DNA of 40,711 nt from contig CAIOMN010000272.1 of the NCBI GenBank assembly GCA_903859415.1, forward strand, positions 1-40,711, read 5' to 3'. Under the pieces are notes generated by a model. The model searched no databases and had not been told where the DNA came from. It worked only from the letters and a program-made list of their open reading frames with translations. This stretch comes from an uncultured Methylococcaceae bacterium (GTDB lineage: Bacteria; Pseudomonadota; Gammaproteobacteria; Methylococcales; Methylomonadaceae). Each line of letters opens with the position of its first letter. Position 1 is the first letter of the stretch. Both the position numbers and the translations under genes were made by a program. Positions 1,254 through 38,438 of the stretch are shown here, one piece after another.

Positions 1254-2732
1254 TTATGATTTACGGTCAAATAAGGACACTAAATAACTAAATCGGGCGG
1301 TTTGGTCATGCGACAGTTGATGCCATTGAAAGCGCCATTTCCAGTTCCCTACTGTTGTACCAGGCGTATTCATTCTTGCCTCTGAGCCCAGTTCAAGAAT
1401 ATCTTGCATTGGGATAATTGCCAAATTTGCGACTGAGCCTAATGCGGCTTGAATGAGCATGCAGTTGATTGGCAAAGATGAGTGGCCAAGATAATCATAA
1501 ACATGAGATCGTTCATAGTCTTGAATAGTCTGTGACCAGCCTATTGTCGTATCGTTATCGTGAGTGCCGGTATAGACAACGCAGTTTCTTTCATAATGAC
1601 CAGGTAAATAAGGATTTTCGTTACCACTGCCAAAAGCAAATTGTAAGATTTTCATTCCTGGTAAATTAAATTCATCTCTTAACGCTTCAACTTCCTCAGT
1701 AATGATACCTAAATCTTCAGCAACTAAAGGAATGGAACCTAATTTTGCTTTAATTGCGTTTAATAGCTCGCTTCCAGGTGCTTTAACCCATTCTCCAATT
1801 TGCGCTGTTGGTTCATTCGCTGGTATTTCCCAAGCAGCTTCTAAACCACGAAAATGATCAATTCGAAGAATGTCAAATTGTTCAAGCTGGGTTTCCATAC
1901 GTTCAGTCCACCATGCAAATCCTGTTTTATTGAGATAATCCCAATCATAATGCGGATTGCCCCAGCGTTGGCCAGTTTCAGAAAAATAATCAGGAGGTAC
2001 CCCTGCGACAACAGACATTTCTCCTGATTCATTGAGCTTAAAAACTTTACGATTTGCCCAGACATCCGAGCTATCGTAAGAAACGAAAATAGGAATGTCT
2101 CCAAACAAAAGTACGCCTCGCTCGTTAGCATAGGATTTTAATTTCATCCATTGTCGAAAAAAAACATATTGTTCGAATTTAATATTTTCAATGTCTTCAG
2201 CTAATCTTTTACTCGCTTCAGTAAGAGCATTTATTTCTCTTTCTTTGAAAGGTGTTGGCCATTGATTCCAGCATTGCTGATTGAACAGGGTTCGAAGTGC
2301 CATGAATAAAGCAAAGTCATTGAGCCAAAATGCTTTTTCTTGACAAAAGTTGGTGAAATCGTCTTTATCTTTTTGGGTCGCACGTTCTAAAAATCCTATA
2401 TAAGCTTTTGCAATTAAACAGCTTTTGTTAAATACGAAAGACCCTTTACATTCTTCGCATTGCTCTGAAGGTTTTAACCAATTTAACTTTATCAAGCTAT
2501 CTATATCAATTAATACAGAGTTGCCAGCATGAGCAGATAGACATTGATAAGGTGACCCATCGGCATGGGTCATGCCTAATGGCAATGTTTGCCATACACT
2601 AATGCCAGTGTCATGTAAAAAATTGACGAAGTTGTATGCCTCTTGTCCTAAATTACCTTGCTTATCAGTGCCCGGTAAAGAAGTAATGTGAAGTAGAACG
2701 CCTGCGCGGCGTTTATTTAAAAGGTTGTTCAC
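1254..2732 (-). CDS. malQ: 4-alpha-glucanotransferase (amylomaltase, GH77)
   Basis: This cytoplasmic enzyme transfers alpha-1,4-glucan segments between maltodextrins and serves glycogen turnover. The 492-aa length is normal for the short MalQ class. The N-terminus has the GH77 pattern RRAGVLLHITSLPG. The catalytic residues are in place: nucleophile D292 in RIDHFRG, acid/base E339 in AEDLG, and D392 in GTHDND. It follows the GH57 gene with a 16-nt gap and is probably co-transcribed with it on the minus strand, possibly from the glgC promoter. No oddities seen. Confidence 0.95.
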   Translation of the reverse strand: MNNLLNKRRAGVLLHITSLPGTDKQGNLGQEAYNFVNFLHDTGISVWQTLPLGMTHADGSPYQCLSAHAGNSVLIDIDSLIKLNWLKPSEQCEECKGSFVFNKSCLIAKAYIGFLERATQKDKDDFTNFCQEKAFWLNDFALFMALRTLFNQQCWNQWPTPFKEREINALTEASKRLAEDIENIKFEQYVFFRQWMKLKSYANERGVLLFGDIPIFVSYDSSDVWANRKVFKLNESGEMSVVAGVPPDYFSETGQRWGNPHYDWDYLNKTGFAWWTERMETQLEQFDILRIDHFRGLEAAWEIPANEPTAQIGEWVKAPGSELLNAIKAKLGSIPLVAEDLGIITEEVEALRDEFNLPGMKILQFAFGSGNENPYLPGHYERNCVVYTGTHDNDTTIGWSQTIQDYERSHVYDYLGHSSLPINCMLIQAALGSVANLAIIPMQDILELGSEARMNTPGTTVGNWKWRFQWHQLSHDQTARFSYLVSLFDRKS

Positions 2733-4611: not shown

Positions 4612-5892
4612 TTAGCGAACATAGTGTAGTTTTTGTCCAAGCATATCAGGAGTGACTAATACAACTCCACCAGAACTTACATGAAACCTCTTTTCGTCCT
4701 CTTCTCTATTTTCACCGATAACGGTTCCTTCTGGAATCTCACAACCCTTTTCTATAATAGCTTTGGTAATGCGGCAATGACGACCTATGTTAACTTGAGG
4801 TAGAACAATAGAATCTTTTACAGAACTATATGAATTAACCCGGACATTTGAGAATAACAAAGAATGTCGAACTGTGGCGCCAGAAATAACACAACCACCG
4901 GAAACCATAGAATCAACCGCGAGGCCACGTCTTTCATCATCATCAAAAACAAATTTGGCTGGCGGTGTTTGTTCTTGATTTGTCCATATTGGCCACGTAT
5001 TGTCATATAGATTTAACCCAGGATTTACTCCGATTAACTCCATATTAGCTGCCCAATAAGCGTCGATGGTTCCTACATCACGCCAATAACTTTGTGCGCC
5101 ACTTTGTAAATCCAAGAACGGATAGGCGTTGACAATATATTTATCAATGACAGAGGGAATAATGTCTTTTCCAAAATCATTGGTTGAGTTTTTATTGTCG
5201 GCATCTTTGAGTAATTGTTCAAAAAGAAAGCCAGCATTAAAAATATAAATCCCCATTGAAGCTAGAGCTGTATCGGTTTTGCCAGGCATAACAGGTGGAT
5301 TTTCTGGTTTTTCTACAAAGGCTTTAACGCGTCGGTTGTCATCCACGTCCATGACCCCAAAAGCGGTGGCTTCTTCAAGAGAAACTTCCAAACAACCTAT
5401 GGTTAAATCAGCCTTTTTTTGAATATGATCCGCAAGCATTGCGCCATAATCCATTTTGTAAATATGATCACCCGCTAGAACCAATATATGTGCTGGTTTG
5501 CGACTTCTAAGTATATCTATGTTTTGAAAGATAGCGTCAGCAGTGCCTTTATACCAAGAGTTTTCATCATGTCTTTGTTGTGCGGGCATGAGATCAACGT
5601 ATTCACCGAATTCGCCACGTAAAAAGCCCCAACCCTGTTGAATGTGACGAATCAAAGAGTCTGACTTATATTGTGTTAATATACCTATTTTGCGGATCCC
5701 AGAGTTAACGCAATTAGATAGGGGGAAGTCGATAATTCTAAATTTTCCTCCGAAAGGTACGGCGGGCTTTGCTCGCCAATCAGTCATGTTCATCAACCTT
5801 GAGCCACGGCCACCAGCTAATATTAATGCAATTGTATTACGGGTTAAGTGACCGACATTGTGATCGGGTTGGTTATTGCTTGGGGCTGACAT
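4612..5892 (-). CDS. glgC: glucose-1-phosphate adenylyltransferase (ADP-glucose pyrophosphorylase)
   Basis: Makes ADP-glucose from ATP and glucose-1-phosphate, the committed step of glycogen synthesis. The 426-aa length is normal. The N-terminal nucleotidyltransferase motif LAGGRGSRL is followed by [11 protein letters not shown], a typical substrate-site segment, and [23 protein letters not shown] is the conserved catalytic and metal region. The C-terminal third shows left-handed beta-helix hexapeptide character ([18 protein letters not shown]). It is divergent from glgB with about 96 bp between the starts, so the two branches of the glycogen locus share a control region. Confidence 0.97.
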
Positions 5893-5906
5893 ATTTCGTC
5901 TCCATG

Positions 5907-5935
5907 TTGATATAGATATTACAACTGTTTGTTAT
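5907..5935 (+). promoter_or_regulatory. candidate promoter in the glgC-glgB divergent region
   Basis: TTGATA (5907-5912) is followed after 17 nt by TGTTAT (5930-5935), a weak sigma-70-like pair oriented toward glgB. The start codon of glgB is 5989, preceded by GAGGT (5976-5980). The divergent spacing makes a promoter here necessary, but this exact assignment is tentative. Confidence 0.3.
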
Positions 5936-5988
5936 TTTGGTAAGATTCACTCAACATTCATTCTACTACTACACCGAGGTCATTCAAA

Positions 5989-8379
5989 GTGAAAAAGCGT
6001 TCTAATAACACACTTGACTCTGATACTAAAAAAGTTATCTCAGCAGAACCTGAAATAAACACACCTGCCTCTGAAATCAAAAAAAATATAAAGCAGGATG
6101 CGGCAACCAGAAATGTAAGCAATACGTCAAATAACAGTGTAAAACAGAAAGAAGTTTTAAAAGAAGAAGATGAAGTGCTTACACCCAATTTAGTCCAAGA
6201 GGTAGTGGTAAGTAAAGCAGTGAATAAGCTTGATGATGACTTAATAAAAATTAGTCAAGCTAAGCATCATGATCCTTTTTCTGTTTTAGGGCGACATATC
6301 AATAATGATCAGGTCCAAATTAAAGTTTATCTTCCTTACGCAGAAACTGTTTGTTTTAGCAGTAATGGCGTTGAGTTAAACCGCATAACCGGGTCTGATT
6401 TTTTTTCATATTTTGCAGAATCTAAAGACTTACCTGATCACTATAAATTAACATGGGTAGATAAAAATGGGTACACCCATGAAAATTATGACCCTTATGA
6501 TTTTGGCAGCCAATTACCGGATTTCGACCAGTATTTATTTGGGGAAGGTAAACATTGGCATGTATACCAAAAATTAGGCGGACACGTTCATGCTGTTGAT
6601 GGTATTGATGGTGTGTTATTTACGGTTTGGGCGCCTAATGCGGGTCGTGTGAGTGTCGTCGGGGATTTTAACCAATGGGATGGTCGTTGTAATCCTATGC
6701 GTAGTTTGGGAGGTAGTGGCATTTGGGAAATATTTATGCCGGGATTAAAAGTCGGGTGTCTCTATAAGTTTGAAATTTTAAATCGCTATACTCAGGAAAT
6801 ATTGTTAAAGACTGATCCTTACGGGCAGCAATTTGAGTTTCGTCCCAATACGTCATCAATTGTAGTCAAAGAAAAAAATTACAGTTGGAAAGATGAGCAG
6901 TGGCTAAATCGAAGAGCTAAGTTCGATTGGTTACACGAACCTATGTCTATTTATGAAGTTCATTTGGGTTCATGGAGACGAGATAACCAAAATAATTTTC
7001 TTTCTTATAGGGTCTTGGCTGTTGAGTTAATCAACTATGTCAAACAGATGGGGTTTACGCATATTGAGTTATTGCCTGTTACTGAACACCCTTTTGACGG
7101 GTCTTGGGGTTATCAAACCACGGGTTATTTTGCGCCAACCAGTCGTCATGGTACACCGGATGATTTTCGTTATTTTATTGATACCTGTCATCAGAATGGT
7201 ATTGGCGTTATTTTGGATTGGGTGCCGGCACATTTTCCAAAAGATGCGTTTGCTCTTGCCCGTTTTGATGGTAGCGCACTCTATGAACATGAAGATCCAA
7301 GAAAAGGTGAGCATCGTGATTGGGGCACATTGATCTATAATTATGGGCGAAAAGAAGTCAAAAACTTTTTGTTGGCGAGTGCGGTCTTTTGGTTAGAAGA
7401 ATTTCATTTAGATGGTTTAAGAGTGGATGCCGTCGCCTCTATGTTGTATCTCGATTATTCTCGTGAAGAAAATGATTGGATTCCTAATATGTACGGAAGT
7501 AATGAGAATTTAGAAGCTATTGATTTTTTCAGAGAACTAAATGCTGTAACGCATGATTTGCATCCCGGTACTGTCATGATGGCGGAAGAGTCGACCTCTT
7601 GGCCTCAAGTTACCCGTCCCACTTGGACTGGCGGTTTAGGGTTTTCTATGAAATGGAATATGGGTTGGATGCATGATGTGCTTGCTTACATGAGTGAACA
7701 ACCTATTCACCGTAAATATCACCACGACAAGCTGACTTTTGGAATGCTTTATGCTTTTACTGAAAACTTTGCTTTACCGTTTTCGCATGATGAAGTGGTG
7801 CATGGAAAGGGTTCATTAATTAATAAAATGCCAGGAGATGAATGGCAGCGTTTTGCTAATTTACGCTTGTTGTATACCTTCATGTTTACTTACCCCGGTA
7901 AGAAATTATTATTTATGGGCTGTGAGTTTGGTCAAGGTACTGAGTGGAATGCGAATAGAGAGCTAGATTGGTATGTATTAGATTATCCTCATCATAAGGG
8001 CGTACAAACCTTGGTTAAGGATCTTAATCATTTATATAAAACCCACCCTGCTTTATTCTCGCATGATTTTGAACATCAGGGGTTTGAGTGGATTGATTGT
8101 CATGATGTACAACAGTCTATTATCAGTTACAGACGTAAAAATAAGTTCGAAGAATTAATTGTGGTGCTTAATTTTACACCGGTTCCTAGAGAAAAATACC
8201 GCTTAGGTGTACCTGAAGAAGGTGTTTATACCGAAATTTTTAATTCTGATTCTAAGTATTATGATGGGACAAATACCGGGAGTGGTGCGGTTGTGTCAGA
8301 ATCAGTGCCCTGGATGAACCAACCTTACTCTATTAGCCTGAATTTACCCCCGTTAGGCGCTTTAATATTAAAGTTATAG
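5989..8379 (+). CDS. glgB: 1,4-alpha-glucan branching enzyme (GH13) with extended N-terminus
   Basis: Introduces alpha-1,6 branches into glycogen. The start is a GTG at 5989, supported by GAGGT 8 nt upstream. Of 796 aa, the first ~80 are low-complexity and rich in Lys, Glu, Ser and Asn, with no counterpart in a standard ~730-aa GlgB. The usual GlgB N-domain then begins ([12 protein letters not shown]), followed by a CBM48-type domain ([18 protein letters not shown]) and the GH13 barrel. Catalytic residues are D480 (GLRVDAVAS), E533 (MAEEST) and D601 ([11 protein letters not shown]), spaced exactly as in E. coli GlgB. It heads a plus-strand operon with glgA 39 bp downstream. Confidence 0.96.
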
Positions 8380-8418
8380 ATTAACCATAGGCTATAGTCA
8401 GGTGATTAAATAAATCCT

Positions 8419-9852
8419 ATGAAAAAAATTCTCTTTGTTACCAGTGAAGCACATCCTTTAATTAAAACCGGAGGGCTCGCTGATGTGTGCGGTAGTTTGC
8501 CAAAAGCATTAGTTGAGTTATCCCAAGATATAAGGTTGATAATCCCTAACTATCAGGCCTTAGAAACGACTGAAAGCGTGCGCTTTCTTTTTTCTCTGCG
8601 TGTTGATAATCGAAACATTAATATACTTGAAACGACTATGCCAGACAGTCAGGTGATTGTTTGGTTGATTGATTATCCTGCGTATTATAATTATCCAGGG
8701 AATCCGTATGTCGATGAACAGGGTAAACCCTGGGTAAATAATGCTGAACGATTTGGCTTATTTTGTCGTATTGTGGTTGAAGTGGCTATGGATAGGGTTC
8801 ATCAAGATTGGAAGCCTGATATTGTGCATTGCAATGATTGGCAGACCGGATTAGTGCCGGCTTTATTGTCTCTTGAATACAATCGGCCATCGACGGTATT
8901 CACTATCCATAATATGGCTTATCAGGGGTTATTTCCGGCTAGTTCAGCTGTTTCTTTGAATTTGCCGGGGCAATTGTGGCATCCTGAGGGACTTGAGTTT
9001 CATGATCACTTATCGTTTATTAAAGGCGGCTTAGTCTATGCCGATTATATTACTACGGTAAGTCCAACCTATGCGTTGGAAATACAAACAGAAGAGTATG
9101 GTTATGGTTTGGAAGGACTCTTGGCGCATCGTAAAGAGTCTTTGGGAGGAATTATTAACGGCATTGATCTTGAACAATGGGATTCCGAGCATGATCAGGC
9201 TATAGCCCAGACTTATTCAGAAACAACGCTGGCTAATAAAAAGTTAAACAAGAGAGCATTGCAGGAAAGGTTCGGGCTGCCTGTTAACGATGATATACCT
9301 TTGTTGGGGTTAATTGGTCGTTTAGTGGAGCAAAAGGGGATTGATTTAATTATAGAATGTTTGCCTGATATGGTAACTATGGAACTGCAATTTGTATTAT
9401 TAGGCAGTGGCGATAAAGGCTTTGAGAAGCAACTTAAAGACTTCGCGTTGTTGTATCCAGATAAAATAGTGATCTCCATCGGTTATGATGAAGCCTTGGC
9501 GCATTTAATTGAGGCGGGTTCTGATGTTTTTTTAATGCCTTCACGGTTTGAACCGTGTGGTTTAAACCAGATGTATAGTCAACGTTATGGCACTATTCCT
9601 ATCGTCAGAAAAACCGGAGGCTTAGCAGACACAGTGACCGATACCTTGCCAGGTACATTAGCAAACGACACAGCCAGTGGCATTGTGTTTAATGAAGCAA
9701 GTCCAAGTGCTTTGCTAGAGGCCATTAAAAGGACATTGATTTTATACAGCCTAACTAACACGTGGGAAAAAATGCAACTAAATGCGATGAGAAAAGATTT
9801 TTCATGGCAACGTAGTGCTCAAGAATACATAACGTTATATGAAAACCTTTAG
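8419..9852 (+). CDS. glgA: glycogen synthase (ADP-glucose-dependent, GT5)
   Basis: Elongates the alpha-1,4-glucan chain from ADP-glucose. Length is 477 aa, as usual for bacterial GlgA. The N-terminal ADP-glucose-binding motif KTGGL (K16) is present, as are HCNDWQTGLVP, the HNMAYQG segment, and the C-terminal GT-B motif SRFEPCGLNQMYSQRYGTIP followed by RKTGGLADTV. The gene follows glgB and its last 14 nt overlap the next gene in a different frame. This suggests translational coupling and a shared role with the CBM21-EEP protein. Confidence 0.97.
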   Translation: MKKILFVTSEAHPLIKTGGLADVCGSLPKALVELSQDIRLIIPNYQALETTESVRFLFSLRVDNRNINILETTMPDSQVIVWLIDYPAYYNYPGNPYVDEQGKPWVNNAERFGLFCRIVVEVAMDRVHQDWKPDIVHCNDWQTGLVPALLSLEYNRPSTVFTIHNMAYQGLFPASSAVSLNLPGQLWHPEGLEFHDHLSFIKGGLVYADYITTVSPTYALEIQTEEYGYGLEGLLAHRKESLGGIINGIDLEQWDSEHDQAIAQTYSETTLANKKLNKRALQERFGLPVNDDIPLLGLIGRLVEQKGIDLIIECLPDMVTMELQFVLLGSGDKGFEKQLKDFALLYPDKIVISIGYDEALAHLIEAGSDVFLMPSRFEPCGLNQMYSQRYGTIPIVRKTGGLADTVTDTLPGTLANDTASGIVFNEASPSALLEAIKRTLILYSLTNTWEKMQLNAMRKDFSWQRSAQEYITLYENL

Positions 9853-11365
9853 TAAGGTGAATAAGATTCAGTTGCTGTATGTGGAAAATGTAATTTCCCG
9901 AAAAAACAAGACAGTTCAACAAATAGTCTCTTTTTTTATGCAGTTAGATAATCTGGGTTATGACAAGCAGTGCGACGTTGTTTGGGCGGGTGAAGACGGT
10001 GAATGGTCTTCATTACCAGCAAGTTACCACAGTGCTTTGGGTGATAATACGGAATATTGGCGTGCTAAAATAACGCTCATGGGTACGAGTGAAAAATCAC
10101 TTCCTGGTAATATTGTTTTTTCTTTGCGTTATTTAGTGCAGGGTCAAGAGTATTGGGATAATAACGAGGGTTTAAATTATTCCAGTGAAGCGGACTCTGG
10201 CATAAAGGTTACGTCTAATCATATAGTACAAAATATTGGTTTTGAGAGTCACTTAGACGTTAAGCAGAAAAGCATTCCTATTGTTGTATCAATCAATGAA
10301 TCAATTCAGGCGCAGGCTGTGACGGTACATTGGACGGTAGATAATTGGTTACATACCTATAAAAATCCTTGCCAATATAAAAGAAATTATTGGGACGAGG
10401 TGGCTTGTAGTAACGCCAGAAATCCAAATCAGTATGGCTCCCAGATTTGGCAGGGATTATTAACGATAGATAATGCGTTTCGAGTGCAATATATTATCTC
10501 TTGTGAGGTCGATGATGAGGTTTTCTGGGATAACAATGGCGATAAGAATTATTCGCTGAGTCATGAAGCACTTAAGGTTTTGATTCTTAATTTGCATTGT
10601 TATCAGGAAGATAATCAGGACATGAAGTTTGCGCAGATAGCTAAAGCTATTAATGAGCAGAATGCTGATGTGATTTGTTTTCAGGAAGTGGCTGAGCTTT
10701 GGAATGATGGCAATGGAAATTGGGACACTAATTCGGCAAAAATAATTAATGATCAATTATTAAAGCCCTATCATATTTATACCGATTGGGCTCACTTAGG
10801 ATTTGATAAATACCGAGAGGGAGTTGCCATTTTAAGCCGTTACCCGTTATTAAAACAGTCCTCAAAATATGTATCTACTGTTCATAGTCCCTATAGCATT
10901 AATTCGAGAAAAGTGGTTATGGCCCAGATAAATGTTCCTTATATAGGGTTGGTTAACGTTTATTCGGCACATCTCAGTTGGTGGTCTGATGGTTTCTCAG
11001 AGCAGTTTAAAAATTTAAGCCAGTGGGCTGATGATAATCAAACCCAGGAAGTAAAGGCAACACTTTTATGTGGCGACTTTAATATCACAGCGGGTTCAGA
11101 AGGCTATCATTTTGTCGTTAATGATAATAGATATGATGACCAGTTTTTAGCGGTTAATTCTCAGGGCGCATTTGAAAAAATATTCAAAGTAAATGACCCA
11201 CATTGGCAACATTATCTTGCAGATGATTATCGGATTGATTATATTTTTATGAATAAAACGAGTGGACTTCACATCACTGATGGAAATGTACTGTTTACCG
11301 ATGAAGATTATGGTCGTGTCTCAGACCATTGCGGCTATTTGATGGCCTTTGAACCTAAGTTTTGA
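9839..11365 (+). CDS. CBM21-CBM21-EEP fusion protein, candidate glycogen/maltodextrin phosphatase
   Basis: A 508-aa protein in two parts. Residues about 20-115 and 140-245 each read as a CBM21-type glycogen-binding module, ending in the signature YWDNNEGLNY (Y105) and FWDNNGDKNY (F229). Residues about 246-508 form an endonuclease/exonuclease/phosphatase domain with every expected active-site residue: N251, E283 (CFQEV), H378 (SAHLSWW), D413 and N415 (GDFN), D467 (RIDYIF) and D496-H497 (SDH). The segments GFDKYREGVAILS and YSAHLSWWSD resemble, from memory, the maltose-6'-phosphate phosphatase MapP rather than DNA-repair nucleases. No signal peptide is seen. The start overlaps glgA by 14 nt and lacks a clear ribosome site, suggesting coupled translation. 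The phosphatase role is inference; a nuclease or phosphodiesterase cannot be excluded. Confidence 0.75.
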   Translation: MKTFSKVNKIQLLYVENVISRKNKTVQQIVSFFMQLDNLGYDKQCDVVWAGEDGEWSSLPASYHSALGDNTEYWRAKITLMGTSEKSLPGNIVFSLRYLVQGQEYWDNNEGLNYSSEADSGIKVTSNHIVQNIGFESHLDVKQKSIPIVVSINESIQAQAVTVHWTVDNWLHTYKNPCQYKRNYWDEVACSNARNPNQYGSQIWQGLLTIDNAFRVQYIISCEVDDEVFWDNNGDKNYSLSHEALKVLILNLHCYQEDNQDMKFAQIAKAINEQNADVICFQEVAELWNDGNGNWDTNSAKIINDQLLKPYHIYTDWAHLGFDKYREGVAILSRYPLLKQSSKYVSTVHSPYSINSRKVVMAQINVPYIGLVNVYSAHLSWWSDGFSEQFKNLSQWADDNQTQEVKATLLCGDFNITAGSEGYHFVVNDNRYDDQFLAVNSQGAFEKIFKVNDPHWQHYLADDYRIDYIFMNKTSGLHITDGNVLFTDEDYGRVSDHCGYLMAFEPKF

Positions 11366-11391
11366 ATAATAAGTAACAATAAGGATAAAAC

Positions 11392-12987
11392 ATGCCGATA
11401 GCAGAACAATTTGCCACACCCACACATGGATATTTAGGCGGTTATTTTCAAAGAGTTAATGATTATAACGAGAAATTTAATGTTCGTTGGGGGAAAATAG
11501 AATTCGATGTGTTTTATGGGGTTCAGGCTAATGTAAAAGTTGTTCTCAAGGTATATCGTGAGCATGGTCTATGTGAAACTTATGTTGTTGATACTGACGC
11601 CTATGATATTAAATGGGATAGACATAAACGATGTACGCGTGATTTTTATGTTCTCCCATTTTCTAATAACTTTGGAAAGATAAGTTGTATTAAATTTTCT
11701 TATATTATCCATTTGAATGAACATTCTATTGCCTCACATAAAGACTACATTTTTATGAACAGTCATGAGGCACAAGATGACAATCCGCAATTTCGCAAGA
11801 TTAGCAGTGATTGGTCAACTGTTAATGAGTATCGTACTTATGAGTTGAATTCAGCAGAATTGCAGAGTGATGTCGATTGGTATAACCACCATTTTGAGTC
11901 GTTAAATTTGACGCCAAAGTTTACCAAAGGGCAGCAATATCATCCTTATCATCCCAAACGTTATCTTCATGATCATATTGATAAGGTGATTCGTAGCAAG
12001 TGGGAAACCCCTGAGCGCTTGTGTACTATAAAAGTTAGTGTGGATTGTATAGATGATTCAGATTTTATTTCCCACTTGATTCATGCCAGTCATCATGGTG
12101 TTTTGGTACAGTGTATTGTTGATTGGCGCAAAATGACCTTAACTAATAGTCATAATTACGCTCGTCTGAAGCAGGCTCGTGTTGAATTGATTGGCGTATT
12201 TTGCACACCTCGACATCATCTTATAGAAGTTGAACCTGATATGCACACAAAGTTTGTAATTTTTAATGATGAAGATTGCATATTAGGCTCTTTTAATATC
12301 ACCTTCGATCGTTGGTGGGCTAATTGGGAGTCTGGAATGACTTTTCGTTCAAAGGGTGTGTGCCGATTATTGGATAATATATTCCAGAGTCAGCGTGGGG
12401 GGGTTAATCAAAAATATGGCGTTGATCCCTTAAGCCATTTTAATTTGCTTTATACCTTTGGCAGGCAAATGATGCTCAATGGCAAGCCTTATCGACCTCA
12501 TCACGCAATCCTTGCTGAAATCCATCACGCTAAATATTCAATTAGATTGTGCCTTTTTTTAATGGGGGACTTATTAGGGGAGCACTATGAGAGTGTTGTT
12601 GAGGCCTTAATTCAAGCAAAGACTAGGGGGGTTTATGTGCACATTCTTTTTAATGGGCATTTAGCAAGAGAAGGTCGTATTGGGGTTGAGCGCTCTATGG
12701 TTGATGAGTTAAATCGACCTTTATTACCTGCAGTACAACGCTTAAAGAATGCAGGTATTGCTGTAGGCTTGGTCTATGGTCAAGATGATCACCCTGTACC
12801 GTATTCACCCATTCATTCTAAATATTGTATTATTGATGATGCTATTGTCATTGAAGGTAGCTTTAACTGGTATAACACTTCGGTATTTTCTCATGATTTA
12901 GTCATTGTTACTAATAATCACCAAATTGCTCAGCCCTATCTTTATGAATTTGAGCAAATTCAGCGTTCGTTTAGGGTTTATTATTAA
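11392..12987 (+). CDS. phospholipase D superfamily protein with N-terminal beta-rich domain
   Basis: A 531-aa protein whose start has AAGGA 8 nt upstream. The first ~130 residues look beta-rich and could be a divergent carbohydrate-binding module, although I see no WDNN signature. Two HKD-type motifs follow. The first is HTKFVIFND at H285-K287, where the Asp position after four spacer residues is Asn (D comes one later). The second is a full HSKYCIIDD at H475-K477-D482. Each ends in GSFN. The family includes phosphodiesterases, nucleases, phospholipases and phosphatidyl transferases. No membrane segment or signal peptide is evident. It lies 26 nt after the CBM21-EEP gene in the glycogen operon, so a role in phosphodiester chemistry on glycogen is possible but unproven. 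Confidence 0.75.
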   Translation: MPIAEQFATPTHGYLGGYFQRVNDYNEKFNVRWGKIEFDVFYGVQANVKVVLKVYREHGLCETYVVDTDAYDIKWDRHKRCTRDFYVLPFSNNFGKISCIKFSYIIHLNEHSIASHKDYIFMNSHEAQDDNPQFRKISSDWSTVNEYRTYELNSAELQSDVDWYNHHFESLNLTPKFTKGQQYHPYHPKRYLHDHIDKVIRSKWETPERLCTIKVSVDCIDDSDFISHLIHASHHGVLVQCIVDWRKMTLTNSHNYARLKQARVELIGVFCTPRHHLIEVEPDMHTKFVIFNDEDCILGSFNITFDRWWANWESGMTFRSKGVCRLLDNIFQSQRGGVNQKYGVDPLSHFNLLYTFGRQMMLNGKPYRPHHAILAEIHHAKYSIRLCLFLMGDLLGEHYESVVEALIQAKTRGVYVHILFNGHLAREGRIGVERSMVDELNRPLLPAVQRLKNAGIAVGLVYGQDDHPVPYSPIHSKYCIIDDAIVIEGSFNWYNTSVFSHDLVIVTNNHQIAQPYLYEFEQIQRSFRVYY

Positions 12988-13055
12988 TCAGTGTCTGTAT
13001 CAGTGCTTTGCCTAGCTAAGTGAAAAGCGTTTTATTCTAATATATGTTAGGCTCA

Positions 13056-14159
13056 TCATTTTTGAGGGTTAAGAGAAAGCATACCGTTCTTTGTAAATTC
13101 ATATTTATGGTCTAGCCACCCTTTCCCAAATAATACAAGAACATTCTCGTAATAATGATCAGGTTTGGAAGATGTTTTTCTGGTTATTAACTCATTCAAA
13201 AAATTATTTGTCGTTTTTAAATCCTCTGCGCTGACTAAAAATGGTAATACAGCAGCTTTAAATCCAAGGGGGTGATAACCAGATTGGGTTTTTAATGCGA
13301 TATCGTATTGTTCTGCCACAAACTCATCAGATTGAATAATTTTTAACATGGGAGAATAATGACTCATCAGCGCTTTTTTTTCTGGCTCATCTTCACTTAA
13401 CATGCCTAGCCAAAGGTAGACTCGAATAGCATTGTATCCTCCTATTTTAGTATCGCTATTGTCATCTTGAATTTGGTTGTTGGTATTTAAAACTGCCCAT
13501 TCTGGTGCAAATCCTAGTGGTGAAGATTGGTTTAAGAGTTTTATACTATTTTCAGTGATTTCATGCCACACTGAATGTGGAAATAATACTTCAAAACGTC
13601 TTAAAATCTGTATTGGAAGATAGCTAGGATTTAACCGCCATGAGGTCGTAGTTACTTGGAACCCTCTTGATCCAGGTAGGACCATCCATCCATAATTAGG
13701 TATTTGTACGGCCTCCTTTTGTAAAATACGTTGGGCTAAAAAATAACCTAATGATTCATAGCGAGATTCATTCCAAATTCGTCCAGCTTCAGTTAGTGCG
13801 TAAGCAATCCATAAATCTGCATCTGAAGCTGAATTTGTATCTAAAACACTATAGGTTTCTTTATTTAGGCCCCATAACCAAGCGGGCAGGTTAACCGCTA
13901 AGTCATTGTTTGCTAAATTGCTTTCGGTCCAATTTAGCAAACGTTGAAATGTTTTCTTATCATCCGCAATCAAAGCAAATACCATTGCATAAGCCTGACC
14001 TTCTGATGTTGTGATCAATTTATGATTACTTCCATCAATAACACGTCCTTCAGGTGAAATATAAATAGCTTTAAATTCCTCCCAATCTTTCCATGTATCA
14101 TCATTTGCAAGTGAAAATAGTGGGGTTACTATTAACAAAATTACAAAAAAAAAACGCAT
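13056..14159 (-). CDS. bcsZ: endo-1,4-beta-glucanase BcsZ (GH8)
   Basis: Periplasmic cellulase of the cellulose secretion machine, which trims or releases nascent glucan. It is 367 aa with an N-terminal signal peptide (hydrophobic FFFVILLIVTPLFSLA). The GH8 motifs are present: SEGQAYAMVFAL holding the catalytic acid Glu, WLWGLN, and SDADLWIAYAL holding the catalytic Asp. It is the last gene of the bcs operon, 24 nt after bcsB. The plus-strand PLD gene converges on it with 68 bp between; I see no strong terminator hairpin there. Confidence 0.94.
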   Translation of the reverse strand: MRFFFVILLIVTPLFSLANDDTWKDWEEFKAIYISPEGRVIDGSNHKLITTSEGQAYAMVFALIADDKKTFQRLLNWTESNLANNDLAVNLPAWLWGLNKETYSVLDTNSASDADLWIAYALTEAGRIWNESRYESLGYFLAQRILQKEAVQIPNYGWMVLPGSRGFQVTTTSWRLNPSYLPIQILRRFEVLFPHSVWHEITENSIKLLNQSSPLGFAPEWAVLNTNNQIQDDNSDTKIGGYNAIRVYLWLGMLSEDEPEKKALMSHYSPMLKIIQSDEFVAEQYDIALKTQSGYHPLGFKAAVLPFLVSAEDLKTTNNFLNELITRKTSSKPDHYYENVLVLFGKGWLDHKYEFTKNGMLSLNPQK

Positions 14160-14183
14160 TTTGATTGCTCTTTTCTAATAAAA

Positions 14184-16466
14184 TTATCGGGATGTTTTCA
14201 AGCGTTTATAAGCAATATATTTAAATAGCCGCCACAGTGTTGTAATTAATAAGATAACCATCAAAAATGTGATCAGGCCAACTAATATAGGGTGGTCTGA
14301 TAATTCGAACCAAATTAGCTTATAGATAGGCAAATAGCCTATGAAGTAAGTTTCTCCTACTTGCACATTAACTACCTCCCCAGCTCTAAATAATGAAACA
14401 GACCCTGATACAACCTGATTTCTATTCATGATCGTTGAAATAATTTGCTTAAAACTAGACGGATGTGATGCCACCAAAGCTACTACACTTCTGTTTTTTT
14501 GCCAAGGTGACTCAAAGCTTAATAGCGCACCCACTTCATTATCACTGTTATTATTAAATTCGATTTGACTTGTTACAGTTCTCTCTGATTTTATATAGTT
14601 TGGTTGAAATATTTCTGTATTTTCAGCATTACGAATTGGTTGGGTAATCGCTTTTTTCATTTCTGATACCAAAACATTTGCTAATTTATTCTTATCGTTT
14701 TCTTGTACAATTTGGGTCGATAATTGACCAATTACGAGTATGTCTTTATCTTCAATTCCGTTATAAGGTGCAGAATCAAAAATAGTAAATTTAGTTGCCG
14801 ATAGTCCCGTTGAAGAACCAAATGACCCTAATAATTCCAAGTAGGTTTCTACTTCGCTCTCAGATGCGTTTTTATTAAGTATAACCCCAGTGTCTGCAAG
14901 ATCGGCTAATCGAGTAAATGGGAAGCCTAGGTTGCTAAAAGATCTTAAGTCAGGCATTGGCATATAATGATAAAATCCACTTAAATCAATCGTGGAATCA
15001 CCATCAACTTCACCATACATATAGTCGGCCGTTAAATCTCTACAATCTCCACCCTCAGGTTTGTTAAATGAATATTCAAATTGAATTCTATTTCGAGTAC
15101 TTAATCTAAACCCGGGAACCAGAATTCTGTTTTCTTCACCAAATACAAGATCATCAATGAGTGGAACTCTGACTCTGTCATTATCGGACTCTCCGCTTAT
15201 CCCGTTTTTGTTTAAAGAAAAACCTTTAATAAACAAGTCGTTTACAAACATAGATAGCTGTGAGTCATCCTCTTTATTTGGAGGCGAGTATCGATATTTA
15301 ATGTTGATCGGAATACCTCTGCTTTTCCAAGTAAATAAATCAGGTGCAATATTAAAATTCAGAATTATAGGTGTCGGTGTGCGACCATGGGTTTGTAATT
15401 GTGTAGGGGTTTCTACTAATTCACCTAATTTAACTTCTCTATCAAGAGGCATCCAAGAAGGGGCGTCGTAGGGTTTACGAGGTAACAATATATTGACATT
15501 GGTAATTTCGGTAAATGATCCTGCTAATATAGGAGAGCCAGTAACTAAACCTTCAATTGCAGTACGGAGATCTTGTTTGTCACGTCCTAAGATCAGTAAT
15601 AATTTTACAAAAGGGTTGGTTGGGTGAGCAATGAGCTGAATAGTTGGTTTACTTACTGGGGGTAGATCCTTTAAAAAATCGGGACGTTTGTCGTTAGTAG
15701 CGAACACAATGGCATGTTTTGTAGGCAGCTGATTAGTGAGAGTAGGAAATGATATAACTCGCCATTTAGCCAGACTACCAAAATACGAAGCTGCAATTCC
15801 AGCAGGTTCCAATGTTTCATTCTTTGAGTTTTCAGGAAAAATAAAAGGAATCTCTACTAAGGTAAAGTCATTGACATCAAAAAAAGGTTTTGGAAAAAGA
15901 GATAAATCGTTTTTTAGTGGAATTGGCTGTACCGTCAACACTAATTGACTCTGTTTACTAATTTCAAACCACTCACTCATTTGTGCTTGGTTTGCACAGC
16001 GCTCCTCACGATAAGTAATTAATTCAAAAGTAATTTCATTATATTTAGATAATAACCTTGGATCAAAATGCATGGTGTTTTTAATTTGAGTCCCTGCTTT
16101 ACTCCTGTCAACGCTAAAATATCCAGCAACTTGGTTATTTATGAGTACGCGCACTTGAGTTACATCTTCTGAAAGTGTAGGAGAATAAATATAAGATACG
16201 TCAATTTTAGCAGCTGTTACTAATTCGTCGAGTCGAGAACCAAAACCAATTGATTGTTTGGATAAATTCCCTTGCAATTTTATAGCTGATTTTATGCCCA
16301 ATTGTTCAAATGAGGTTACATCATCAATGACTGGAGGGTTATCAACAGTGTATGTCACGTTATCTTTAAAAAAATTACGTTGTGCACAAAAGCTCGGTGT
16401 CGACAAAGTAAACAATACAGAAAAAAAGAGTGCGAATAAAATTTTAGTTGTTGCAGAGACTTTCAT
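14184..16466 (-). CDS. bcsB: cyclic-di-GMP-associated cellulose synthase periplasmic subunit BcsB
   Basis: Membrane-anchored periplasmic subunit that partners BcsA and guides the emerging glucan. The start at 16466 (760 aa) is preferred. TGA of bcsA is followed by one base and then this ATG, with AAGGA 8 nt upstream, and the protein opens with a signal peptide (KILFALFFSVLFTLS). An in-frame TTG at 16487 would add seven residues inside bcsA and is unlikely. The C-terminus has one membrane helix (VGLITFLMVILLITTLW) followed by a basic tail, as expected for the BcsB anchor. Length is close to the enterobacterial protein. Confidence 0.93.
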   Translation of the reverse strand: MKVSATTKILFALFFSVLFTLSTPSFCAQRNFFKDNVTYTVDNPPVIDDVTSFEQLGIKSAIKLQGNLSKQSIGFGSRLDELVTAAKIDVSYIYSPTLSEDVTQVRVLINNQVAGYFSVDRSKAGTQIKNTMHFDPRLLSKYNEITFELITYREERCANQAQMSEWFEISKQSQLVLTVQPIPLKNDLSLFPKPFFDVNDFTLVEIPFIFPENSKNETLEPAGIAASYFGSLAKWRVISFPTLTNQLPTKHAIVFATNDKRPDFLKDLPPVSKPTIQLIAHPTNPFVKLLLILGRDKQDLRTAIEGLVTGSPILAGSFTEITNVNILLPRKPYDAPSWMPLDREVKLGELVETPTQLQTHGRTPTPIILNFNIAPDLFTWKSRGIPINIKYRYSPPNKEDDSQLSMFVNDLFIKGFSLNKNGISGESDNDRVRVPLIDDLVFGEENRILVPGFRLSTRNRIQFEYSFNKPEGGDCRDLTADYMYGEVDGDSTIDLSGFYHYMPMPDLRSFSNLGFPFTRLADLADTGVILNKNASESEVETYLELLGSFGSSTGLSATKFTIFDSAPYNGIEDKDILVIGQLSTQIVQENDKNKLANVLVSEMKKAITQPIRNAENTEIFQPNYIKSERTVTSQIEFNNNSDNEVGALLSFESPWQKNRSVVALVASHPSSFKQIISTIMNRNQVVSGSVSLFRAGEVVNVQVGETYFIGYLPIYKLIWFELSDHPILVGLITFLMVILLITTLWRLFKYIAYKRLKTSR

Positions 16467-16467
16467 A

Positions 16468-19086
16468 TCAAGCGTCCTTATACTCAAGAGTATTATCTAT
16501 AATGTTTTTAGGTAGCAATGTTTTGATATAGCTAATAAATGAGCTTAATAACAAAAAAGGCTTTGTAATAAATTGAGGGAGCATCCTAAGTAAAATAAGA
16601 TAGCCGTGGAAGCTCACTTTAAGAATTGATATTAAGCTTGAGAGAGGCTTGTCTTTAGCGAAATTTTGGTTCCAGAGGCTCCATGCATCTGATCGGGAAT
16701 AAGTACATTGGGTAAATTCAAGTTGTTGTTGAATGGTTAACTTTTCAAAAATAGCTCCAATATAGTTTTTATTTTCGTGGGTGATTCGTACAGGAAATAA
16801 GAATTCTTTATCACCGCGTGGAATTAGGATATGAATGATTTCATTTTTTTCAAGTTTTGTTTCATCATTTATGTAAAGCCCTACTCCTGCGCTCGAAAAA
16901 TCACGCAAAGTTGCGCAAAATAAATGACCTGAATTATTTTTAATTATAATTTCAGTATTAGCTTCAATCCTTTGATTTGTACGTAATTGTTTTGTTTCTT
17001 GTGCTACGCTGATTGCTCCACCCAGCAATATTAGATTATAAGCTGTCCACGCAAAATTTAAAATTACTGTAAGTTGTTCGTCATCCGGCCCAAAAAAATA
17101 TCTGTATACCGCAAGTACTATACCTATGATGTTTAGTACTATTAGCGTCAGGTAGGGTTTGGATATACTTAAATCAAAATAGTCTTTTTCGATTAAACCA
17201 CCTTTAGCCGTTACATTAAATTTCCCGATTTTTGGGTTAATCAATGCTACTGTTGTAGGGCGGGCAATGTACCAAGCAAGAACGGTTTCATATATCTCAG
17301 CCCAAAATGAGTAGCGATATCTACCCTGAATATAGGAGTTAGCGATATTGGCATGTATCAGTGTAGGGGCAGCGTAAAGTAAAATCTCTATTGCCGGTGC
17401 ATAAATCAGATAACTATGAAATAGAAGAAACCCTAATGGCGCTAACAAAAAAATTAAACGGGGTATTCCACCTAGAAAATGAATCATTGCATTTGTATAG
17501 CACAAGCGTTGACTAATACTTAGCCCTTTTCCAAGCAATGGGTTATCTATACGAAATATTTGTGCCATGCCTCTTGCCCAGCGAATTCGTTGTCCAACAT
17601 GTGCAGACAATGATTCTGTGGCTAATCCAGAAGCTTGAATAATATTTAGATAAGCAGAGGAATATCCTTTTCGGTGTAAACGTAACGCGGTGTGTGCATC
17701 CTCTGTGACTGTTTCTGTTGCAATACCTCCAACTTCTAGCAGGGGATCACGTTTTAATATCGAACAGGAGCCACAGAAAAATGAGGCATTCCATAAATCA
17801 TTTCCATCTTGAACAACACTATAAAACAAATTATTTTCGTTCGGGGTGCGTTTGAAATTACCAATGTTCCGTTCAAATGGATCTGGTGAGTAAAAGTGAT
17901 GTGGTGTCTGAACAAGCGCGAGTTTTATATCAGCTAAAAATGAGCCCATCGTAATTTGTAAAAATGATCTGACAGGCACATGGTCACAATCAAAGATTGC
18001 TATGTAATCACCTTGAGTAATTGTTAATGCATGGTTAATGTTACCAGCTTTAGCGTGATTATTATTATCACGAGTGATGTAGCCAGCACCTACTTCATTT
18101 GCAAATATTTTAAATTCTGGTCGATTACCGTCATCAAGAACAAAAACATTGATTTTATTTTTTGGCCAATCAATGTCCAGTGCTGCCAAAAGTGTAGTTT
18201 TAACAATTTCAAGCGGTTCATTATAGGTGGGTATAAAAATATCTACACTTGGCCAAACACTAGTATCTTCAGGTAAGGCTAGAGGCTTTCTTTCTAACGG
18301 CCACACTATTTGAAAAAATCCCAGTAACAAAACAATCCATGCATAAGTCTCTGCGAAAATTAAAATCACGCCAAAAAATACATCAAGACTGTTGTCGATG
18401 TTTAATGTAGAGTTATATCTCCACCATAAGTAACGTGAAGATATTGTTACTGAAAGAGTAATAAGCACTAATCTGGGTAATTTTCCAGGTGTTGAATAGG
18501 CTAAGAAAGCTACAAATAAAAGAAGTAAACTGAAGGTGACTTGTGCTGAAGTAGTAAAAGGAACTGAGAAACAAATAATCGCTAATAGACCTGCAAATAG
18601 CAAATATATCTGACTCTCAAACTTATTACTGAGGCTCATATTTGAAATTTCAACTTTGTTGAGCATACGGTCGGTTGAAATAGAAATTTTTTCAAGCGGT
18701 AAGAGAAGACTCAGTTTTATAAAAGTTAAAGCTAAATAAATAAAGTCTAAGTTAATTATTTTATTTTTAGTTCTGTTTGATTGTACAGTCGATAACCACA
18801 ATAATTGTAAGAAGAAACGAAGAATATCAGCCAGCGTAGGCTCTGAAAAATTGACGTGAGGGAAGTGTTTTTTGAAAATTTGGGCAGCATTCTTTCTGTT
18901 ATCATCATAACAAAAAGCAAAAAATACTATTCCAACTAAAATGCTAAATAGTGGTGTGTTATCAGCTAATAAAGTTTTTTTGAATACAACCCAGTCTTTA
19001 CCAATAGTCGATTGATTAATAATAAAGAATAATTTTACATCAATAGGCAGTTTTGTGTCTTTATTGAAATGATCTCTTGTAGACAT
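16468..19086 (-). CDS. bcsA: cellulose synthase catalytic subunit (UDP-forming, GT2 with PilZ)
   Basis: Inner-membrane processive glycosyltransferase that polymerises UDP-glucose and extrudes the chain. The 872-aa length matches the enterobacterial form with its N-terminal extension. GT2 motifs are in order: DDG (318-320), DCD (366-368), TED (461-463) and QRIRW (499-503). Several membrane helices flank the catalytic domain. The C-terminal PilZ domain has RTNQR (702-706) and DFSSAG, so the RxxxR and DxSxxG c-di-GMP contacts are intact. Neighbours are bcsQ (9-nt gap upstream) and bcsB (1-nt gap downstream). Confidence 0.97.
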   Translation of the reverse strand: MSTRDHFNKDTKLPIDVKLFFIINQSTIGKDWVVFKKTLLADNTPLFSILVGIVFFAFCYDDNRKNAAQIFKKHFPHVNFSEPTLADILRFFLQLLWLSTVQSNRTKNKIINLDFIYLALTFIKLSLLLPLEKISISTDRMLNKVEISNMSLSNKFESQIYLLFAGLLAIICFSVPFTTSAQVTFSLLLLFVAFLAYSTPGKLPRLVLITLSVTISSRYLWWRYNSTLNIDNSLDVFFGVILIFAETYAWIVLLLGFFQIVWPLERKPLALPEDTSVWPSVDIFIPTYNEPLEIVKTTLLAALDIDWPKNKINVFVLDDGNRPEFKIFANEVGAGYITRDNNNHAKAGNINHALTITQGDYIAIFDCDHVPVRSFLQITMGSFLADIKLALVQTPHHFYSPDPFERNIGNFKRTPNENNLFYSVVQDGNDLWNASFFCGSCSILKRDPLLEVGGIATETVTEDAHTALRLHRKGYSSAYLNIIQASGLATESLSAHVGQRIRWARGMAQIFRIDNPLLGKGLSISQRLCYTNAMIHFLGGIPRLIFLLAPLGFLLFHSYLIYAPAIEILLYAAPTLIHANIANSYIQGRYRYSFWAEIYETVLAWYIARPTTVALINPKIGKFNVTAKGGLIEKDYFDLSISKPYLTLIVLNIIGIVLAVYRYFFGPDDEQLTVILNFAWTAYNLILLGGAISVAQETKQLRTNQRIEANTEIIIKNNSGHLFCATLRDFSSAGVGLYINDETKLEKNEIIHILIPRGDKEFLFPVRITHENKNYIGAIFEKLTIQQQLEFTQCTYSRSDAWSLWNQNFAKDKPLSSLISILKVSFHGYLILLRMLPQFITKPFLLLSSFISYIKTLLPKNIIDNTLEYKDA

Positions 19087-19095
19087 GATTATTCA

Positions 19096-19851: not shown

Positions 19852-20037
19852 TTAAGCAGTTCTATTGTTGTTATAGTTTGAAGGATTTTCGTTAACAAAT
19901 GATACTATTTCATTAATAAGCAGCCATTTATTTTTTATTTTTGTAAGGTATTCATTTTCTTTAATTTCAACGTAAAAGTTAGCATCAACATTAATGCTTT
20001 CATAGAGCTCATTTACATCATTTTTTTCGTATTTCAT
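19852..20037 (-). CDS. bcsR: BcsR-like small protein
   Basis: A 61-aa soluble protein immediately upstream of bcsQ, where E. coli has bcsR. The pattern NDV..L near the N-terminus and K.KWLLINEI near the C-terminus parallels E. coli BcsR (NDI..L and KRWPLLAEF), as recalled. BcsR pairs with BcsQ at the cellulose synthase. Similarity is weak, so the name rests largely on position, size and these short patterns. Its stop codon abuts the bcsQ start. Confidence 0.68.
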   Translation of the reverse strand: MKYEKNDVNELYESINVDANFYVEIKENEYLTKIKNKWLLINEIVSFVNENPSNYNNNRTA

Positions 20038-20055
20038 TTCAATATCTCCTAGTAT

Positions 20056-21651: not shown

Positions 21652-21652
21652 A

Positions 21653-21835
21653 TTAATTCCTCGATTCGATTGAAAAGAATTCTGTAAAGTTAACGGATTT
21701 TAATACTTTTGGTTTTTTAGTTATCGTCGCTATTAAGCTTAATAGAAGAGTCCATGCTCTTACTAATACTAATCCTATACTGATGCCTGTTAAGAGTGAA
21801 ACAGTTACTGTAATAATAAAATCGCTGATATTCAT
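21653..21835 (-). CDS. bcsF: cellulose biosynthesis protein BcsF
   Basis: A 60-aa protein with one membrane helix (residues about 7-35) and a basic, polar C-terminal tail. Size, topology and position between bcsE and bcsG match BcsF, the membrane tether that recruits BcsE in enterobacteria. The stop of bcsE lies 6 nt upstream and bcsG starts 1 nt downstream, so the three genes are translated as a unit. Confidence 0.8.
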   Translation of the reverse strand: MNISDFIITVTVSLLTGISIGLVLVRAWTLLLSLIATITKKPKVLKSVNFTEFFSIESRN

Positions 21836-21841
21836 TGTAAA

Positions 21842-23512: not shown

Positions 23513-23557
23513 AATTAGTTTCTTTTTAATAAGAATAGATGATCTTCTGTTATCTAC

Positions 23558-38404: not shown

Positions 38405-38438
38405 CCAGTGTAAACCACGCGGAGCATCTTTATTTTCA

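What the first reader, a model, noticed from the sequence alone, without database searches (positions are those of the whole stretch)
9839..11365. Two glycogen-binding CBM21 modules fused to a MapP-like EEP domain: a possible bacterial laforin analogue
The sequence directly shows two WDNN...NY CBM21 signatures and a complete set of EEP active-site residues in one protein, encoded in the glgBA operon. CBM21 is best known from eukaryotic glycogen-targeting subunits and fungal glucoamylases and is unusual in bacteria. The EEP part resembles maltose-6'-phosphate phosphatase as I recall it. A carbohydrate-binding module plus a phosphatase is the architecture of laforin (CBM20) and SEX4 (CBM48), though on an unrelated catalytic fold. 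This suggests a bacterial enzyme that removes phosphate from glycogen or maltodextrin.
Basis: partly seen in the sequence, partly recalled or inferred. Interest (0 to 1): 0.8.

Follow-up and report, generated by a model that had tools for sequence, protein, structure and literature searches.

The report
Glycogen-binding sugar-phosphatase of methane-eating bacteria
Methane-eating bacteria carry, often beside their glycogen genes, an enzyme predicted to hold on to glycogen and clip phosphate off it, a job so far known from animals, plants and protists and done there by an unrelated enzyme, which makes it testable whether bacterial glycogen carries phosphate at all.

Summary
The 508-aa gene at 9839-11365 encodes two CBM21 modules (both over Pfam's cut-off) and an EEP domain whose catalytic residues are all kept. 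The EEP part is kin of MapP: a profile of five EEP enzymes encoded next to PTS sugar transporters scores it 134.6 bits, against 18 for YbhP and 15.5 for exonuclease III. Yet no PTS_EIIC was found in the 31 fusion-bearing methanotroph genomes searched, so PTS-made maltose 6'-phosphate is an unlikely substrate. The CBM21 modules resemble those of animal PP1 glycogen-targeting subunits and Rhizopus glucoamylase. The fusion is common in one methanotroph family and occurs in three Accumulibacter genomes. Best reading: a glycogen-bound phosphomonoesterase working with a PLD-like phosphodiesterase on glucan phosphate. It would work like laforin/SEX4 but is not a member (no DSP domain). A 2009 paper stated that no bacterial protein joins a phosphatase and a carbohydrate-binding domain. 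Activity, binding and substrate are inferred, not shown.

The parts
9839..11365 (+). CBM21-CBM21-EEP fusion gene (508 aa; true start may be GTG 9857)
9914..10183 (+). CBM21 module 1 (Trp56, Trp106, DNN)
   Evidence: Pfam 35.2 bits; profile matches Rhizopus glucoamylase CBM21 2.9e-6 and PPP1R3C 6.1e-6
10262..10558 (+). CBM21 module 2 (Trp170, Trp230, DNN, Tyr238)
   Evidence: Pfam 38.9 bits; profile matches PPP1R3C 1.7e-9 and PPP1R3B 1.1e-7
10565..11362 (+). EEP catalytic domain, MapP type (aa 243-508)
11392..12987 (+). partner gene: PLD-superfamily protein with two HxK...GSxN motifs (531 aa)
   Evidence: Pfam PLDc_2 121.4 bits; next gene downstream in 72 of 80 loci
11392..11826 (+). N-terminal strand-rich domain of the PLD partner, no known relative found
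12244..12297 (+). first HxK motif of the PLD partner (His285, Lys287; Asn292 at the usual Asp)
   Evidence: invariant in 16 sequences; motif layout recalled
12814..12867 (+). second HKD motif of the PLD partner (His475, Lys477, Asp482)
   Evidence: invariant in 16 sequences; motif layout recalled
5989..8379 (+). glgB, glycogen branching enzyme
   Evidence: 1029.9 bits
8419..9852 (+). glgA, ADP-glucose glycogen synthase
   Evidence: 583.3 bits
4612..5892 (-). glgC, ADP-glucose pyrophosphorylase (divergent)
   Evidence: 687.6 bits
2749..4440 (-). GH57 family protein
1254..2732 (-). malQ, 4-alpha-glucanotransferase

Best explanation
The protein is a glycogen-tethered, metal-dependent phosphomonoesterase. 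Two CBM21 modules hold it on the glycogen particle (family shown by profile, binding inferred). Its EEP domain, of the MapP sugar-phosphatase type (shown by sequence), removes phosphate esters from glucose units of the glycogen or of maltodextrins being released from it (inferred). The PLD-superfamily protein encoded by the next gene probably acts first, opening phosphodiester adducts on the glucan and leaving a monoester for the EEP domain (inferred from the conserved pairing only). The phosphate would come from a side reaction of glycogen synthesis, since no glucan dikinase was recognised in the genome and no PTS sugar permease was found. In effect it would be a bacterial counterpart of laforin/SEX4, evolved on a different catalytic fold.
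For: CBM21 x2 and EEP over curated cut-offs. The CBM21 profiles match PP1 glycogen-targeting subunits and Rhizopus glucoamylase among solved structures. The EEP part is of the MapP type: 134.6 bits to a profile of five PTS-context EEPs against 18.1 (YbhP), 15.5 (XthA), 2.9 (YafD), 2.4 (own XthA-like) and at most 5.5 for 200 shuffles; shared SHxG[FY] and HxSWW-type motifs; best solved relative 3teb. Six of seven related stand-alone EEP genes outside the order whose surroundings I read lie directly beside a PTS IIBC gene. Active-site residues invariant in 20 homologues. At least one glycogen gene in 59 of 80 loci, in two main arrangements. PTS_EIIC in 0 of 31 fusion-bearing methanotroph genomes searched. 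PLD partner next downstream in 72 of 80 loci, and in 126 of 128 fusion-bearing genomes of a draw of 251.
Against: No activity or binding data. It is not established that glycogen of these bacteria carries phosphate; PMC13011383 (passages seen) treats that as open. No phosphate-adding enzyme was found: the genome's two PPDK_N proteins are PEP synthase and PPDK. 21 of 80 loci show no glycogen gene, including all 3 Accumulibacter loci, though 6 of the 21 have under 1.5 kb of 5' sequence. EEP enzymes also include nucleases and phosphodiesterases: human neutral sphingomyelinase and TDP2 rank next by structure, and the window EEP scores 30.7 bits (3e-9) to a single-sequence YbhP profile, more than the MapP-type enzymes do (6.2 or less). 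The seventh EEP relative (L062) lies beside a GMC oxidoreductase gene, with no PTS gene recognised among the five neighbours scanned. Two of three Accumulibacter genomes do have a PTS_EIIC.
Confidence: 0.55

Rival explanations
1. A soluble-substrate enzyme: it dephosphorylates small phospho-maltodextrins or hexose phosphates formed during glycogen turnover, and CBM21 only places it where they arise. Glycogen itself is not the substrate.
For: MapP kinship; as recalled from Mokhtari et al. 2013 (not seen here), MapP prefers phosphorylated alpha-linked disaccharides. glgX was confirmed in 7 of 7 candidate neighbours scanned and a GH57 branching-enzyme relative in 3 of 3.
Against: A stand-alone MapP-type paralogue without CBM exists in the same genome, so the fused copy presumably has a polymer-specific job; no PTS source of maltose 6'-phosphate found.
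Confidence: 0.25
2. A glycogen-anchored phosphodiesterase, nuclease or nucleotide-sugar hydrolase: EEP and PLD domains both can act on phosphodiesters, and the pair degrades something other than glucan phosphate at the granule, such as ADP-glucose, RNA or membrane lipid.
For: PLD-superfamily partner nearly always present; structural neighbours after 3teb include neutral sphingomyelinase, TDP2, PDE12 and nocturnin; 30.7 bits to a YbhP profile.
Against: EEP sequence lies with MapP, far from exonuclease III; the only NCBIfam match at E<=0.01 is the MnuA nuclease model at 17.3 bits, cut-off 185. Sphingomyelinase sequences were not compared, and whether NCBIfam holds a model for them was not checked.
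Confidence: 0.15
3. A regulatory scaffold: CBM21-bearing, like PP1 targeting subunits, recruiting partners to glycogen, with catalysis secondary or lost.
For: CBM21 modules resemble PPP1R3 subunits.
Against: The residues taken as catalytic are invariant in 20 divergent homologues, so catalysis appears to be under selection.
Confidence: 0.05

Closest known systems
MapP, maltose 6'-phosphate phosphatase (Enterococcus/Lactococcus type) and its structural relative 3teb
   Same: EEP fold, catalytic residues, SHxG[FY] motif and (MapP-type, not 3teb) HxSWW-type motif; nearest relatives by profile
   Different: The five MapP-type genes read on plasmids lie beside PTS sugar importers and are about 260-275 aa without a CBM; here no PTS found, two CBM21 modules and a glycogen-gene setting
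Laforin (CBM20-DSP) and SEX4 (DSP-CBM), eukaryotic glucan phosphatases
   Same: Phosphatase domain fused to an alpha-glucan-binding module; presumed glycogen/starch phosphate substrate
   Different: Catalytic fold unrelated (EEP instead of cysteine-based DSP); CBM21 in two copies; bacterial
PP1 glycogen-targeting subunits PPP1R3A/B/C
   Same: CBM21 with the WDNN..NY-type signature
   Different: Those carry no catalytic domain and recruit PP1, a protein phosphatase (recalled)
Exonuclease III / YbhP
   Same: EEP superfamily
   Different: 13.4 (XthA-type) and 30.7 (YbhP) bits to their profiles against 134.6 to the MapP-type profile; they lack the SHxG[FY] and HxSWW-type motifs

Membership tests
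CBM21 | Match to the CBM21 profile above the curated cut-off | tested here: met
   35.2 and 38.9 bits, cut-off 28.9
CBM21 | Conserved ligand-binding aromatics (Trp47/Tyr94 of Rhizopus CBM21; residue roles recalled) | tested here: met
   In the printed alignment Trp47 lines up with W56 and Tyr94 with W106; I take W170/W230 as the counterparts in module 2. W56, W170, W230 invariant and W106 at 90% or more of 20
CBM21 | Binds starch or glycogen | not testable with these tools
   needs protein
MapP-type EEP sugar phosphatase | EEP fold and catalytic residues | tested here: met
MapP-type EEP sugar phosphatase | Groups with MapP-context EEPs rather than with other EEP families | tested here: met
   134.6 bits against 18.1 or less; tree branch 89/96 (outgroups few and on long branches; sphingomyelinases not included)
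MapP-type EEP sugar phosphatase | Coupled to a PTS maltose/alpha-glucoside importer | tested here: not met
   PTS_EIIC in 0 of 31 genomes
MapP-type EEP sugar phosphatase | Dephosphorylates maltose 6'-phosphate | not testable with these tools
   needs assay
Laforin/SEX4 glucan phosphatases | Dual-specificity phosphatase (DSP) domain | tested here: not met
   Pfam at E<=0.01 finds only CBM_21, Exo_endo_phos and a sub-cut-off CBM_25
Laforin/SEX4 glucan phosphatases | Phosphatase joined to an alpha-glucan-binding CBM | tested here: met
   as architecture only
Laforin/SEX4 glucan phosphatases | Releases phosphate from glycogen or starch | not testable with these tools
   needs assay
Exonuclease III / DNA-repair EEP | Match to xth profiles | tested here: not met
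   no xth model at E<=0.01, while E. coli XthA scores 316-516 bits to three of them
PP1 targeting subunit | RVxF PP1-docking motif (recalled) | not tested
   not looked for

The most novel reading that the evidence does not exclude
Some bacteria run a covalent phosphate cycle on their glycogen, with enzymes unrelated to the eukaryotic ones: a glycogen-bound EEP phosphatase paired with a PLD-superfamily phosphoryl- or phosphodiester-transfer enzyme. The PLD partner either opens phosphodiesters before the phosphatase acts (repair) or is itself the phosphate-adding enzyme (it shows weak, below-cut-off likeness to polyphosphate kinase, a PLD-fold enzyme, the last from a poor model). The pair was passed to Accumulibacter, known (recalled) for cycling polyphosphate and glycogen.
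Probability: 0.3. Interest if true: 0.87.

Novelty: new variant of a known kind. Interest (0 to 1): 0.72.

Why it matters
[quoted passage not shown] PMC2714694 (2009, passages seen) concluded that no bacterial protein joins a phosphatase and a carbohydrate-binding domain and that a bacterial glucan phosphatase is unlikely. This protein is such a join, conserved across a family of methanotrophs, and gives a gene to delete and a protein to assay. If true, glucan dephosphorylation arose at least twice on unrelated folds, which bears on why glycogen phosphate matters (Lafora disease) and on carbon storage in methanotrophs and in wastewater Accumulibacter.

Tried and rejected
Rejected: (a) CBM_25 match at aa 262-301 (22.5 bits, under the 27.3 cut-off, inside the EEP domain): taken as chance. 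(b) The idea that the N-terminal domain of the PLD partner is also a CBM21: hhalign probability 0.4% against CBM21 module 2, while modules 1 and 2 find each other at 92.5%; no solved relative by sequence up to E 10. (c) A glucan water dikinase in the genome: the two PPDK_N proteins are PEP synthase (TIGR01418, 1138 bits) and PPDK (TIGR01828, 1258 bits). (d) An informative setting for the PLD gene where it stands apart from the fusion: five such loci plus the PLD locus of G190 were read; blastp against my reference set (window proteins, GH57 branching enzyme, DUF4912, GlgX, stand-alone EEP) found no glycogen gene near it. (e) Promoter/terminator scan of 5800-13100: 24 promoter-like sites against 24.1 expected, 5 terminator-like against 5.1 expected, so uninformative. 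(f) The structure model of the PLD partner is poor (mean pLDDT 62), so its fold matches are only a hint.

Corrected on the way: my first synteny script found PLD in 68 of 80 loci; it missed the gene in two Accumulibacter loci (L147, L148) and two others; tblastn gives 72 of 80. For the report check I recounted the co-occurrence, confirmed glgX in six more loci and read the neighbours of L062 and of the own stand-alone EEP.

Literature: searches (9 of 10 allowed; open-licence PubMed Central papers only) listed no title on a CBM21-EEP fusion. Only listings and, for the papers named in the report, passages were seen; no paper was read whole. That is no proof of absence, least of all in subscription journals.
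Full report
WHAT IS THERE. The ORF at 9839-11365 (+) encodes 508 aa. Pfam finds two CBM_21 modules and an Exo_endo_phos domain, both families over the curated cut-offs; each CBM21 copy passes on its own at 35.2 and 38.9 bits. The gene follows glgB and glgA on the same strand, with glgC, a GH57 protein and malQ divergent. Homologues suggest that the true start may be the GTG at 9857, 4 nt after the glgA stop.

THE CBM21 PART. A profile of 20 homologues matches, among solved structures, PP1 glycogen-targeting subunits PPP1R3C (5.6e-8) and PPP1R3B (7.4e-8) and Rhizopus glucoamylase CBM21 (2.7e-6). Alone, module 1 matches Rhizopus glucoamylase best (2.9e-6) and module 2 PPP1R3C (1.7e-9). In the printed alignment the Rhizopus binding residues Trp47 and Tyr94 (their role is recalled; the one paper that I checked for them did not name them) correspond to W56 and W106; W170 and W230 are the likely counterparts in module 2. 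W56, W170 and W230 are invariant in 20 homologues and W106 nearly so. CBM21 is rare in the draw made: of 398 genomes drawn from the phylum only the window's own had a match (the 20 other rows shown are all of the same class, so the draw may lean to that class), and 0 of 14 control genomes did.

THE EEP PART. Its best solved relative is 3teb, by sequence (7.3e-31 with the profile) and by fold (2.3e-19 against 2.8e-13 for the next, human neutral sphingomyelinase; model mean pLDDT 86.6). On plasmids 60 records match; none covers 80% of the query and the 20 listed cover 50-51%, the EEP half. I read the surroundings of five of the 60, and in each the EEP gene lies directly beside a PTS IIBC gene, with GH65, beta-phosphoglucomutase or alpha-glucosidase genes near it. 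Of the two EEP-only matches in the class-wide draw, one stands in a malQ-phosphorylase-EEP-PTS IIBC row (L155) and one (L062) beside a GMC oxidoreductase gene with no PTS gene among the neighbours scanned. The PTS setting is that of MapP as I recall it (Mokhtari et al. 2013; not seen here). A profile of five of the PTS-context EEPs scores the window EEP 134.6 bits; E. coli YbhP gets 18.1, XthA 15.5, YafD 2.9, the window genome's own XthA-like protein 2.4, and the best of 200 shuffles 5.5. Against this reading, a single-sequence YbhP profile gives the window EEP 30.7 bits but the MapP-type enzymes only 6.2 or less, so the window EEP keeps some YbhP likeness that MapP lacks. SHxG[FY] and HxSWW-type motifs are shared with MapP-type enzymes and absent from XthA and YbhP, although L063 and 3teb lack the WW. 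In the tree the fusions form one clade (97/99), joined by the stand-alone paralogues (80/78), with the MapP-type group and L062 in the same 38-row part (89/96); outgroups are few and on long branches, so deep order is unsure.

NOT AN ORDINARY MapP. PTS_EIIC is absent from the window's genome and from 30 of 30 further fusion-bearing methanotroph genomes (completeness 96% or more; chosen by me from the 127 others), while 7 of 14 control genomes ring. PMC8062543 (passages seen) says that Type I methanotrophs do not encode a PTS for glucose transport. So PTS-made maltose 6'-phosphate is an unlikely substrate. The window genome also carries a stand-alone MapP-type paralogue (G000:C61, 39% identical), which leaves the fused copy a distinct, presumably polymer-bound, task.

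DISTRIBUTION. In a draw of 251 genomes of the order, 130 had a match, all shown as one family. I count 128 with the fusion-type gene (three of them partial: G158, G194, G230) after setting aside G173 and G190, whose best matches are at the level of the stand-alone paralogue (for G190 judged from its E-value alone, its row not being listed). In the class-wide draw 3 of 369 genomes matched: the window's own and the two EEP-only proteins. A scan of GTDB representatives gave 186 relatives, of which the best 80 were kept: 74 bear titles of methanotroph groups (Methylobacter, Crenothrix, Methylovulum, Methyloglobulus, Methylomonas, Methylococcales bacteria and the like), 3 are titled only as bacterium, proteobacterium or gammaproteobacterium, and 3 are Accumulibacter, 56% identical. 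The Accumulibacter EEPs nest inside the methanotroph clade, which suggests gene transfer. Accumulibacter is known for cycling glycogen and polyphosphate (recalled). Two of these three genomes do have a PTS_EIIC, so the no-PTS argument rests on the methanotrophs.

SETTING. Two main arrangements occur: glgBA-fusion-PLD, as here, and DUF4912-GH57 (branching-enzyme-like)-fusion, usually with PLD and often beside glgX. The proteins scanned bear the names out: GlgX in 7 of 7, GH57 with BE_C in 3 of 3, DUF4912 in 2 of 2. In 59 of 80 loci at least one glycogen gene (by my tblastn identity thresholds) lies in the fetched stretch; 21 have none, 6 of them with under 1.5 kb of 5' sequence, and including all three Accumulibacter loci.

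THE PARTNER. The gene at 11392-12987 is a PLD-superfamily protein with two HxK...GSxN motifs (the first has Asn292 where Asp is usual), invariant in 16 homologues, and a strand-rich N-terminal domain without known relatives. It lies next downstream on the same strand in 72 of 80 loci; 5 of the other 8 end within 600 bases of the fusion. The remaining three (L111, L117, L124) lie in genomes that have it elsewhere, in one of them only as a 111-aa piece. In the 251-genome draw: both genes 126, fusion only 2 (G223, whose contig ends 110 bases past the fusion, and G227), PLD gene only 3 (G098, G190, G242), neither 120. In G063, G116 and G142, assembled in one or two contigs, the two genes stand far apart yet both are kept. 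All this is within one family plus Accumulibacter, so shared ancestry explains part of it; in a class-wide draw 1 of 339 genomes (the window's own) has the PLD gene. The pairing is tighter than the tie to glycogen genes, so any mechanism should include it.

MECHANISM. Shown: domain content, MapP-type kinship, conserved active site, pairing with PLD, glycogen-gene setting, no PTS_EIIC in the genomes searched. Inferred: glycogen binding, phosphomonoesterase activity, glucan phosphate as substrate, PLD acting on a diester first. Source of phosphate: no dikinase was recognised; a side reaction of glycogen synthase, as proposed for mammals, is recalled and only a possibility here.

KNOWN OR NEW. 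[quoted passage not shown] The Chem. Rev. survey of prokaryotic alpha-glucan enzymes (PMC11046441; a term search of the first 300,000 of 445,374 characters) has no mention of CBM21 in that part. PMC13401447 (passages seen) reports that a methanotrophic mussel symbiont massively transcribes a gene annotated as maltose 6-phosphate phosphatase; whether that is this fusion or the stand-alone paralogue I could not tell. By fold it is a new variant of the MapP-type EEP enzymes; by work it would be a convergent counterpart of laforin/SEX4.

Noticed in passing
window 11392-12987: PLD-superfamily protein with an orphan N-terminal domain, nearly always paired with the CBM21-EEP gene; its alignment is more conserved (79% mean column identity, 16 sequences) than its partner's (62%, 20 sequences).
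   Followed up: yes
L159 5396-6238 (own genome contig C61): Stand-alone MapP-type EEP paralogue (280 aa), found in many genomes of the family, beside an oligopeptide-type ABC-transporter ATPase gene.
   Followed up: partly
L030 6407-7147; L041 11147-11875: DUF4912 protein next to a GH57 branching-enzyme-like gene and near glgX: an uncharacterised glycogen-linked family.
   Followed up: no
L146, L147, L148: Accumulibacter carries the fusion and PLD pair, its EEP nested in the methanotroph clade; in L146 it lies beside a carbamoyltransferase gene and pgk and tpi genes.
   Followed up: partly
L160, L161, L162 (G116, G142, G063), about positions 6490-6800: A divergent small ORF (86-100 aa, containing MNKITPHLxRDL) sits just upstream of the PLD gene where that gene stands apart from the fusion.
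   Followed up: no
window 38436-38815: Tandem repeat, 41-bp unit, 9.2 copies at 93%, open in three frames, followed by about 1.5 kb without an ORF of 100 aa or more.
   Followed up: no
window 13056-27301: Cellulose synthesis cluster on the minus strand (bcsZ, bcsB, bcsA with PilZ, bcsQ, bcsG, bcsE, bcsC).
   Followed up: no
G127:C38, G136:C45, G214:C163: Copies of the fusion with one in-frame stop codon; could be pseudogenes or assembly errors; left as they are.
   Followed up: no
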